In this document: positions 10,104 to 59,100 of the stretch, in pieces
Layout: each line of letters opens with the position of its first letter
Numbering within the stretch: position 1 is the stretch's first letter
DNA from: Utricularia gibba
Lineage: Eukaryota > Streptophyta > Magnoliopsida > Lamiales > Lentibulariaceae
Assembly (NCBI GenBank): GCA_002189035.1
Contig: NEEC01000011.1
Coordinates: forward strand, 2,232,001-2,296,000
Direction: 5' to 3'
Length of the DNA stretch: 64,000 nt
Notes under the pieces: model-generated
Told to the model about the DNA's origin: nothing
Databases searched by the model: none
Seen by the model: the letters and a program-made list of their open reading frames with translations, nothing else
Program-made: the position numbers and the translations under genes

Positions 10104-10590
10104 ATGGAGGAAGATAACCCAGGGGAGCCCGCTGGTTCGGTGCTTCTCTTCAAGCTCATGAGCAAAAGAAGGACTTGGGTATGCCTGTTCGTAGTAGTGT
10201 ACGCGACTCTGCTTTCCCTTTCGTGGAACCTCCTCAAATCTGTTCTTTCGTGGTATGAAGTCAAATCGTCTGCGGATTCTTCATCTGGGTGGTCTGCGTT
10301 GTACCCCTCGGTTCTCTTGGGGGCCGCTTTTGGGTTCTATCGGCGGTATCCGCGCTGGCGGTGGCGGTGCCGGCGACATTGGTAACGTGGATAACGTTGC
10401 TGGTGATGTTGGCTTTCTGTGGGAAACCTAGAAAGACTCTGGTTGTAGAAGGGAAGAAATTGACGGCGGAGATTACTAGGTCTGTGGCTAGGATTTTGAT
10501 CAAGGAAGGGAACATTGTGGCGGCGATTTGCGCTGTTGTGGGTACTTCGTCTTAGCAGGTAGGAACAAGGAGCCTGCTAATTTTGATTGA
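10104..10590 (+). CDS. Small multi-pass membrane protein, frame broken twice by apparent single-G losses
   Basis: Frame 1 from ATG 10104 gives an acidic start, then KRRTWVCLFVVVYATLLSLSW and further hydrophobic sequence up to SVLLGAAFG. The continuation (LSAVSALAVAVPATLVTWIT, then GKPRKTLVVEGKKLTAEI) is in the next frame, and the final hydrophobic tail YFVLAGRNKEPANFD is in a third frame that stops at 10590. Each switch is explained by one missing G: in the GGG at 10332-10334 and in the GGG at 10540-10542. With both restored the ORF is one continuous protein of about 160 residues with roughly four membrane segments. I do not recognise a named family and assign no function. It may be an intact gene with consensus errors or a young pseudogene. 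Confidence 0.65.
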
Positions 10591-10619
10591 GATCTCATCA
10601 AGATTAGATCTTTCTTTTT

Positions 10620-11260
10620 TGGGCTCCTGCGTGTACACTAATTTGAGGTTTTGAAGCAGATGATGATCGATGATCATCTTGTCAGTTGTACACTAATTAG
10701 GTTTTGAATGCATCTAATCTTCAAAGTTTTTGAATATTTGAGGAAGTATTGGGAGAAAGCTGCGTTCTTTTCTCTGTAATTTGCGCCGCGTCGATCTATT
10801 CAGGGCTTCAAAAAGCTGAATGAAACTTCCATTTTGAAACACTGTTCGCATAAATGGCGTCACAGTATCAAGAAAAGCTTCCATTTTGAACTCCAATGCA
10901 GGCCTCACTGTTCATATTGGCGATCCTCAACTTTTTTCAAATGAACCATCTGATGCTTGGACTGAGATCGAGTGGCAAACCTGCAGAGGATCCAAGGCAG
11001 ATAAAAGTACATGCTTCGCTGTGGGAGCCCTCTCGAACAGTTCTTCCTCTGCAGACGACAGGTCCCAGATAGTTGTGATCCTTGCGTTAAGCTCCAGCAC
11101 GTAACCTCTCAAGCACTGACTGAGGAAACAACAGAATCCCATGACCATGCAGCTGATGAAGTGATGCAGATTTGGACCCAAGAGGGTAAATAGAGAGCAA
11201 CCATGCTGGTATTCTTTCCCTGCTCGATGAGAATACATCTAACAATTTGTTGCTTTCTGA
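10620..11260 (+). other. Unidentified region with short coding-like stretches
   Basis: Two overlapping plus-strand ORFs (10886-11104 and 11011-11193) look mildly coding-like (for example SDAWTEIEWQTCRGSKAD and TEETTESHDHAADEV) but are in different frames, and no splice pair joining them was convincing. A run of nine or more C lies at about 11305-11314. Confidence 0.2.
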
Positions 11261-11319
11261 ACTTGCCCGTTTCCCAGATACACTATTGGTGTAGTGTAAT
11301 AACTCCCCCCCCCCCTGAA

Positions 11320-55140: not shown

Positions 55141-56160
55141 AACAAGATCCGATCTTCAAGCTCGTTGCTTCTTCTGTTCATGCTTTTGCTTCGCCTTCTT
55201 GTGGATTATGCCCACATTTCATTTATTTGTCATAATGGGTTCCTACTTCCCTCTAGTATCTATCTCTTGCATTATTCAATGACACTTTCTGCAAATTTAT
55301 AGAATGCAGAGCTGCCTTCGGTTACTGCATTCCCCCTTTTTGAGTTACTTCCATGAAATGTTATGGCAAAACTCCGCTCTGGTTGTTTATGTTGTTAACT
55401 TGAAGCTGTGTATGAGAATACTTCTGCCCCTTAGATTCTCAATAGGACAAAACAAGTGGTCTTGAGAAGCAATGTCTCATCTCTAGACTAAGACTCAGGA
55501 TCCTTTAGACTAAGACAGATTGATGCAGCTGAACTTGGAGTTAGCAGTAGATGTGTTGCAGAGCAATATGTGAAAATGCCACACCAGAGCATGTGTGGCT
55601 TGTTAGGGTGCCTGAGAAGAGGAGTGTGGATCCTTGCCTTGATAATGAACCTTTTGTATATCATTCTGAAAGAGAGGGTACGTAGGGTAGATGATGAAGA
55701 GATACATTGCATGTGGGGTGACAGCTCGGCCCTTGGTCCCCAACTCCCCATCAGACATTCTTCTGGTGAGGGAATTTGTCCTGTCTGCAAAATAGAATGA
55801 CTGGTTTGCGTTTGCTTGATTGTGGTCTCCGCTGTCTGATCTATTTTAAAAACCAGAGCAGTACAGGAGATGAACTGCTTCATTTGTGGTGAGATTAATG
55901 GTAGTGGGGGAAAATGAAAGATCAAATCTGCATAGTGTGTGGAGGCTGTGAAATGCACAATCACAACAAAACTGGACAATAGATTAGAAAGCCCCCAGAA
56001 CAGCACATCATCTACATGTTTCACTATGGGAGAACTTGTGCTCACCAGGAGGACTCATCTTATTTCGAAACAGGAAGTAGAGGAACAGGAATCAAGCAAA
56101 TGTGTGGGGGGATTCTTACAACCAGAAGACACAGAATGAATCCGACTTGTAGATGGGATG
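55141..56160. other. Intergenic region between SMT2 and VHA-B
   Basis: The first 200-300 bases are presumably SMT2 3' UTR. Beyond this, overlapping ORFs on both strands (for example minus 55488-56045) lack protein-like composition. No gene supported. Confidence 0.45.
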
Positions 56161-56163
56161 GGA

Positions 56164-59100
56164 TCAAATGGAAGTGTCCCTGCTATAGAACAGGTCCAGC
56201 GTTTTGGCTGGGATACGGTGGAGGAGTTCACGTGGAAAGATTCTGAGCAACGTCCATGCTAGATCGAGTGACTGGAAGATGTTGCGGGTATCGTAGGCTC
56301 CTTGCGAGACGAACTTCCTTTCGAATTTATCAAGAAACTCCAGGTACAGCTGCAAACGAAGATGCATAAAACCGGTTATGAGGATAAAAAACATATCTTG
56401 GCAAATGAGTTTGTTGTACAAACCAAATCCTCCGAGGAGAGAGCTTCTTCTCCGACCACAGCCTTCATGGCCTGCACATCCTTCCCAATGGCGTAGTTTG
56501 CATAAAGCTGGAAAGGTCAGCAATGGAAGACAGAAACATTAAAAAAAAAAAAAAACTAGACGGAGATAAAGTCTTGGCAATGGGATTGAAAGGAATACTT
56601 GGTTCGACACATCGGAGTGATCCCTACGGGTCATGCCCTCACCAATGGCACTCTGCATGAATATTTATGCAGAGTTAGCAGCGCCCTTAAGAGTTTAGGA
56701 TGATGCACAATTGATGTATATTCTTTCTAATACCTTCATGAGTCGAGACAAGGAAGGCAGAACATTGATTGGAGGGTAAATCTAAGAAATCAGAAAACAA
56801 AAAACACTAATTAAAAAGGTCTCAAGAACTTGAATGCGCACTATTAGTGTCATGTCCGCACTTTATTTTGAGGAACTTCGTAGTGTTTGGAGTTGATTAT
56901 ACCATAGAAAAAGAGGCACTAGTTTATGAAGATAAGCCTGAGACTGCTTCATAAAATCCTGCCTTAGTTTTAACACCTATGCCGGTTCAAAACACTCACT
57001 CAGAGAACGTGAGAAATCATTCATACATTACCTGCCGATTGTAAAGTTGTCTGTCAATATATATTTGCCCTTCAGTAATATAGCCAGTAAGATCTGGAGT
57101 GGGATGTGTGATATCTGAGCAATGAAATAGTAAGAGACATGAAGGGTGAGGTACTAGTCACCATATAGACAAGAAAAAAGTAGCAGATAGTGTAGGGCAG
57201 AGATATCCTACCATCATTTGGCATAGTCAAGATAGGGATTTGAGTAATTGAACCCTTTCGACCTTCGATACGCCCAGCTCGCTCATAAATTGTAGCCAGA
57301 TCAGTGTACATATATCCAGGATATCCACGCCTACCAGGCACTTCCTCTCTAGCAGCAGACACCTAATGACATGCATTCTAGACTATGACATTCGATTCAG
57401 GGTACTGGAGTTAATTAAATAGGAGCTAAACGGAACATAAGAAACGCAAAATTGGCAAAACCTCACGAAGAGCATCAGCATAAGAACTCATATCTGTCAA
57501 TATGACAAGAACATGCTTCCCACATTCATATGCCAAGTATTCTGCAGTTGTCAGTGCTATACGAGGGGTGATAATGCGCTCTATTGTTGGGTCATTTGCC
57601 TGAAGGAAAACTGATATTAGAAAGAAAACGTGGAGTTAGATATCCTGAGAAGAAATATTTCTTCAAGCATAATTACCAGATTTAAGAAAAGGGTCACTCT
57701 TTCCATGGATCCATTTTCCTCAAAATCACGTTTAAAGAATTGTGCAGTTTCCATGTTGACCCCCATTGCAGCAAAGACAATGGCAAAATTGTCCTCTTCA
57801 TTGTCCTGAAAAAGTTATGTCATGAAAAACTTTACGAAAAGCATTCCAGATGCATAATGATCTCTCCATATTACTGAGCAATACGGATAACGATTTAAAA
57901 CCGTAGACTAAAATATCAAAAGGAAAATAATTAAATACTGAAAATGTAACAAATGATGTGATTTTAACTCGATCAATCAATCAAGTGTGCATTGCAAGAA
58001 ATAAACAAAAGCTTCTTACCCCCTCTGGGTCCAAATTCTCTCATACAAACGTAGCATTAGAAAAAGACTAAGATGATGGCAGCATGATTTTAGAAAATGT
58101 AAAACATCGAATCACCAAGTAACCAGCCAGGAGAATCACCTCAAGAAGATTCTCAGATTTCTCTAAGCGTTTTACCAAGCCAGCCTGACGACAGATCTGG
58201 GCCGCAATTTCGTTATGCGGAAGACCAGCAGCAGAAAAAAGAGGTATTTTTTGTCCTCTAGCAATTGAATTCATAACATCTATTGTTGAAATTCCAGTCT
58301 GTATCATTTCCTCGGGATAGGTTCTCTCACTAGGATTAATTGAGCTTCCTGGATTCGCGGTAAAATATTTTGTCAAGCAAAAAAAATTTTAATTACAAAC
58401 AGAAACAATTTCCAAAGCAGAAAACTTGCCAGAAATATCCAAGTATGCCTCGGGAAGTATGGGTGGACCGTTATCAATCGGTTTCCCGGAACCGTTAAAA
58501 ATACGGCCAAGCATGTCCAAAGAGACAGGTGTTTTTAGTACCTGTAAAAAGATACTTAGAAAAAAACTCAACAAATTCTATTAGCAGGATGAGGGGAACA
58601 TGATGCATCAATTCTTAACACCATGGTACTCAATGAACGGTGAAAGACTGTAGTTTGGTTTCCTTTTAAATAGCTTTTTAACAACACCAAAAACAATCAG
58701 AATAATAGTACTACTACTTGAGCAAGTGACATCTTAGGTTCAGCGAGAGCACTAAGAGATTGATGCACTTAAGGAAAATGGCAATAGTATTATGCACATG
58801 GGATACTCATAAAAACCTACAAAAAAACACAGTGAAAAAGCATTGTGTGCAAATCCATTTAATGGATTACCCACAAATGCTGGAGAAAATTAAAAGAAAG
58901 TTTAACTAGCAATACCTCCCAGTGAACTGGACGGTTGTATATTTGTTGTCAATTCCAGATGTTCCCTCAAAAACCTGAGCGAAAGAAATTAAAAAAAAAT
59001 CCCATTAAGGAATAAGCTGAGTTAAAAATGCTAGGGAGAAGATCCTTTATGCAGGTGCCCCAAGCAGGGCTGGCAATGAAAGAAGTACTCACTTAATGGA

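What the first reader, a model, noticed from the sequence alone, without database searches (positions are those of the whole stretch)
10332..58920. Six one-base losses, all in short G/C runs, break four otherwise clean genes
Frames of the membrane protein (10332-10334, 10540-10542), polyubiquitin (20857-20861, 21767-21772), formin (36299-36302) and VHA-B (58918-58920) are each restored by adding one G/C to an existing run of G or C. No comparable defect needs an A/T run or a substitution, and polyubiquitin, formin and VHA-B are otherwise perfect over hundreds of codons. This is the signature of homopolymer under-calling in the assembly consensus rather than of six independent mutations. Automatic annotation would wrongly truncate these genes or invent micro-introns.
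Basis: partly seen in the sequence, partly recalled or inferred. Interest (0 to 1): 0.75.

Follow-up and report, generated by a model that had tools for sequence, protein, structure and literature searches.

The report
G/C-run base losses: assembly artefact
Six apparent single-letter losses that break four ordinary plant genes are real in the deposited sequence, but they are almost certainly mistakes of the long-read assembly, which under-counts runs of G and C across this whole genome, so they say nothing new about the plant.

Summary
The six frameshifts are in the sequence at the stated coordinates, and the artefact reading is strongly supported. The window lies in a 100.1-Mb, 516-contig plant assembly that fits the PacBio-only (HGAP plus Quiver) Utricularia gibba assembly. 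Both sides of the breaks tested stay under purifying selection, and intact paralogs of the polyubiquitin, membrane-protein and VHA-B sites exist. A survey of two other families (GRAS, HSP70) found 19 further frameshifts. Fifteen lie at a G/C run of 3 or more, where about 13% is expected by chance. Seventeen are clear one-base losses and none is a clear gain. Exact G/C runs fall off steeply genome-wide (length 6: 14,854; 7: 2,706; 8: 214). A redundant contig differs from its primary copy by gaps that are all losses. Published HGAP+Quiver assemblies show the same residual error.

The defect is genome-wide, not local: roughly a fifth of GRAS genes sampled look broken this way. A/T runs also lose bases in a redundant contig. 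No reads were available, so single sites are not proven.

The parts
10104..10595 (+). Small predicted membrane protein gene (about 162 aa), broken twice; no Pfam family
   Evidence: sequence; intact paralog C328:481745-482236, 86% aa identity; dN/dS 0.12 on the unbroken blocks; no Pfam match
10332..10334 (+). Site 1: GGG, one base short; the paralog has GGGG
   Evidence: paralog DNA alignment
10540..10542 (+). Site 2: GGG, one base short; lost base may be G or T
   Evidence: paralog DNA alignment
20731..21880 (-). Polyubiquitin gene of five repeats plus one extra residue; two breaks, otherwise perfect protein
   Evidence: dN/dS 0.004-0.011 against paralogous repeats
20857..20861 (-). Site 3: run of 5 where sister repeats have 6 (Ile-Pro-Pro-Asp)
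21767..21772 (-). Site 4: run of 6 with one base missing at or beside it (C, G or A)
35333..38252 (+). Formin gene (FH1 and FH2; 5' limit approximate), one break in FH1
   Evidence: PF02181 E=6.5e-80 on the FH2 exon
36299..36302 (+). Site 5: CCCC, one base short, in the proline-rich FH1 region
   Evidence: C1 paralog alignment
56400..60300 (-). V-ATPase subunit B gene (multi-exon; limits approximate), one break
   Evidence: 127-aa match to solved plant VHA-B, E=8e-78; PF00006 exons
58918..58920 (-). Site 6: GGG on the coding strand, one base short, at the last codon before a splice donor
   Evidence: C304 paralog has GGGG

Best explanation
The breaks are consensus errors. In this single-technology long-read assembly the consensus caller counted one base too few in short runs of G or C. 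The true genes of the plant are intact. Shown: the breaks exist; the same kind of break recurs across the genome in one direction and at G/C runs; G/C runs of 7 to 8 are scarce genome-wide; and the genes tested are under purifying selection outside the breaks. Inferred: that reads at these six exact sites would support the longer runs, and that the cause is the indel profile of PacBio reads left over after Quiver polishing.
For: (1) Assembly identity: 100,091,633 bases in 516 contigs and a contig of 6,822,880 fit the U. gibba PacBio assembly: 101 Mb and contig N50 3.4 Mb (PMC6265445), HGAP at 88x (PMC5793159), Unitig_8 of 6.8 Mb (PMC8333044). (2) Recurrence: 19 independent frameshifts in GRAS and HSP70 genes; 15 at a G/C run of 3 or more against about 12.5% expected (p about 6e-11); 17 lost-base, 0 clear extra-base. 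(3) Run spectrum: exact G/C runs of 6, 7 and 8 number 14,854, 2,706 and 214; in 195 kb sampled there is no G/C run of 7 to 10 but 163 A/T runs of those lengths. (4) Redundant contig C316 against C412: 4 substitutions, 16 gaps, every gap a loss in C316. (5) Selection: dN/dS 0.12, 0, and about 0.01. (6) Precedent: HGAP3 plus Quiver at 262x left 205 indels, nearly all in G or C homopolymers (PMC4832174); 561 homopolymer single-base deletions after Quiver (PMC4888979).
Against: No reads, RNA or second assembly of the same plant could be examined. Two of the six bases are not uniquely G/C. The redundant contig also shows four losses in A/T runs and two isolated A losses, so the error is not confined to G/C. 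At least one HSP70-like frameshift, shared by C241 and C304 copies and not at a run, looks inherited, so real frameshifts exist in this genome.
Confidence: 0.93

Rival explanations
1. The losses are real, very recent mutations (or heterozygous alleles) that have just turned four genes into pseudogenes.
For: Real frameshifts do occur in this genome: C241 and C304 HSP70-like copies share one that is not at a run. Paralogs exist that could cover for a loss.
Against: No decay elsewhere in the genes tested (dN/dS 0.00-0.12). Several hits in one 64-kb stretch, all losses, at G/C runs, and the same bias across contigs would need a genome-wide one-way mutation process that leaves no other damage.
Confidence: 0.05
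2. Some breaks are spliced around. In VHA-B an upstream acceptor (TTTTTTTCTAAG|TATC) would restore the frame with a short replacement stretch.
For: The alternative acceptor lies just upstream of the normal one and gives an open frame (read).
Against: It would replace a residue that solved plant VHA-B chains have as Glu, and add residues that no aligned chain has; the C304 paralog has the ordinary exon end with GGGG. It cannot explain the intronless polyubiquitin coding region or the FH1 exon.
Confidence: 0.01
3. Programmed ribosomal frameshifting at the G/C runs keeps the proteins whole.
For: The breaks lie at runs, which can be slippery.
Against: No shared slippery motif or position; paralogs and sister repeats at the same codons are in frame; unrelated families across the genome show the same losses.
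Confidence: 0.01

Closest known systems
Residual homopolymer deletions in PacBio HGAP plus Quiver consensus (Streptomyces albus SM254, PMC4832174; Enterococcus faecium ATCC 700221, PMC4888979)
   Same: Single-base errors after Quiver polishing; in S. albus nearly all in G or C homopolymers; in E. [quoted passage not shown]
   Different: Those cases were proved and corrected with Illumina reads; here no reads were available and the genome is a plant of about 43% G+C in the window
True pseudogenising frameshifts
   Same: One-base change breaks the frame
   Different: Here one direction only, at G/C runs, with strong purifying selection on the rest of the gene

Membership tests
Homopolymer under-calling of a long-read consensus | One-base losses, not gains | tested here: met
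   All six in the window; 17 lost to 0 clearly gained elsewhere, two ambiguous
Homopolymer under-calling of a long-read consensus | Located in or beside homopolymers more than chance | tested here: met
   15 of 19 survey sites at G/C run of 3 or more, expected 12.5%
Homopolymer under-calling of a long-read consensus | Genome-wide, not tied to one gene or region | tested here: met
   GRAS and HSP70 sites on more than ten contigs
Homopolymer under-calling of a long-read consensus | Steep loss of long runs of the affected bases | tested here: met
   14,854, 2,706 and 214 for G/C runs of 6, 7 and 8; no control plant genome was available for comparison
Homopolymer under-calling of a long-read consensus | Accurate reads show the longer run | not testable with these tools
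   No reads held
Pseudogene | Relaxed selection on the remaining coding sequence | tested here: not met
   dN/dS 0.12 (membrane), 0 (two VHA-B exons), about 0.01 (ubiquitin); formin not tested
Pseudogene | Other disabling changes (stops, splice losses) | tested here: not met
   None seen in polyubiquitin, the membrane protein or the formin and VHA-B exons examined

The most novel reading that the evidence does not exclude
The plant line really loses single bases in G/C runs (for example through a mismatch-repair defect in a clonally kept stock), so the breaks are genuine and widespread.
Probability: 0.03. Interest if true: 0.6.

Novelty: not a real feature. Interest (0 to 1): 0.2.

Why it matters
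It is ordinary as biology, but useful as a warning. In this assembly about 11 of roughly 50 GRAS genes and 4 of roughly 14 HSP70 genes sampled have their conserved domain split by such a loss (my counts). Gene counts, gene-loss claims and truncated-protein claims that rest on this sequence alone may therefore be inflated, unless transcripts or short reads back them.

Tried and rejected
The original assembly paper is not held. A search for a published report of frameshift errors in this genome brought up none among the papers listed. Organelle contigs as a control: plastid atpA, atpB and rbcL are intact, while the broken atpB- and atpA-like frames on C515 look like decayed plastid-derived copies and were not used. 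Three GRAS splits (C4:1155502, C1:1229491 and C375:104130) were left out: two show ordinary introns and one a long gap. C3, C244:2105 and C402 GRAS fragments look like true decay or divergence and were left out. C414:3444866 and C244:1855129 allow either one gain or two losses and were not counted as clear losses. A suspected break in the PP2C gene at 60.9 kb proved to be an ordinary intron. Programmed frameshifting was rejected because paralogs are in frame at the same codons.

Full report
Observation. The six breaks were read directly. In each, the coding frame before the run continues in the minus-one frame after it, which means one base lost.

Gene-by-gene support. The small membrane protein has an intact, single-frame paralog at C328:481745-482236, 86% identical over 162 residues, and the DNA alignment shows one missing base at each of its two sites. 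At the first the paralog has GGGG against GGG. At the second the paralog reads CTT CTT GGG, so a lost T explains the window as well as a lost G. The polyubiquitin gene has five repeats. Both breaks fall at the Ile-Pro-Pro-Asp codons, where sister repeats carry runs of six C. The last repeat shows five. The first shows six, with a base missing at the edge of the run that could be C, G or A. The ubiquitin search returned 22 full-length in-frame repeats in the genome, three in the window gene and 15 in the three other polyubiquitin genes. The VHA-B break sits on the last codon before a splice donor. The sequence with that one residue masked matches solved plant VHA-B over 127 residues, which carry Glu there, and the C304 paralog has GGGG where the window has GGG. 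The formin break lies in FH1, and the FH2 exon downstream is intact.

Is it chance? In 35.7 kb of intact coding sequence a random deletion falls within two bases of a G/C run of three or more 12.5% of the time. Six of six has p of about 4e-6.

Survey outside the window. HSP70 and GRAS genes have long uninterrupted coding stretches, so adjacent matches in different frames reveal breaks. The stretches were fetched and compared with intact paralogs. Of 19 distinct breaks, 15 lie at a G/C run of three or more, three at a G/C run of one or two bases, and one at no run. The last is shared by the C241 and C304 copies and so is probably an inherited mutation. Among the places scored, 17 are clear losses, two could be one gain or two losses, and none is a clear gain. 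The binomial p for 15 of 19 is about 6e-11. The assignment to a run was made by eye and is limited by codon degeneracy: protein comparison alone cannot say which base was lost.

Genome-wide spectrum. Exact runs of 6, 7 and 8 G (or C) number 14,854, 2,706 and 214. The step from 6 to 7 keeps 18% and from 7 to 8 keeps 8%, while shorter steps in the sampled DNA keep 19 to 29%. A/T runs do not collapse: 163 of length 7 to 10 against none for G/C in 195 kb. No control plant genome was available, so the expected spectrum is an extrapolation.

Direct view of assembly error. The 38-kb contig C316 duplicates part of C412. Over 10 kb they differ by 4 substitutions and 16 gaps, and every gap is a loss in C316. 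Twelve are single bases: six in G/C runs, four in A/T runs and two isolated A. One-way differences mark consensus error, not allelic difference. They also show that A/T runs are not immune, at least in a redundant contig.

Selection. On the blocks outside the breaks, dN/dS is 0.12 for the membrane protein, 0 for two VHA-B exons and about 0.01 for ubiquitin. Ubiquitin and VHA-B synonymous sites are near saturation, so those ratios are rough, but no decay is visible.

Identity and precedent. Size, contig lengths and plant gene content fit the Utricularia gibba PacBio assembly, built with HGAP and Quiver at 88x (PMC5793159, PMC6265445, PMC8333044). The species name is inferred from these fits and not confirmed by sequence comparison; the review gives 581 contigs against 516 here. 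Published HGAP plus Quiver assemblies retained 205 indels, nearly all in G or C homopolymers (PMC4832174), and 561 homopolymer single-base deletions (PMC4888979).

Verdict. As biology the finding is ordinary. Its use is as a caution for gene-loss claims made from this sequence alone.

Noticed in passing
L043 (C241:16500-18600) and L044 (C304:2235450-2237600): Two near-identical HSP70-like copies share one frameshift that is not at a homopolymer; it is probably a true inherited mutation.
   Followed up: partly
L055 (C316) against L056 (C412): A 38-kb redundant contig differs from its primary copy by gaps that are all losses, including four multi-base losses; useful as a direct error sample.
   Followed up: yes
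195 kb of sampled DNA including the window: A/T run lengths show a bump at 7 (184 runs of 6, 113 of 7, 29 of 8); possibly another consensus distortion.
   Followed up: no
window 11305-11315: A run of 11 C, the only G/C run longer than 6 in the sampled 195 kb.
   Followed up: no
L105 and L106 (C515): Broken atpB- and atpA-like frames on a 267.5-kb contig that look like decayed plastid-derived copies in the mitochondrial genome.
   Followed up: partly
GRAS genes on C142, C375, C2, C244, C1 (L062-L065, L067): Five GRAS genes break at the same Gly-Pro-Pro region because its codons spell G/C-rich runs; a hot spot that could mislead family-wide gene-loss surveys.
   Followed up: yes
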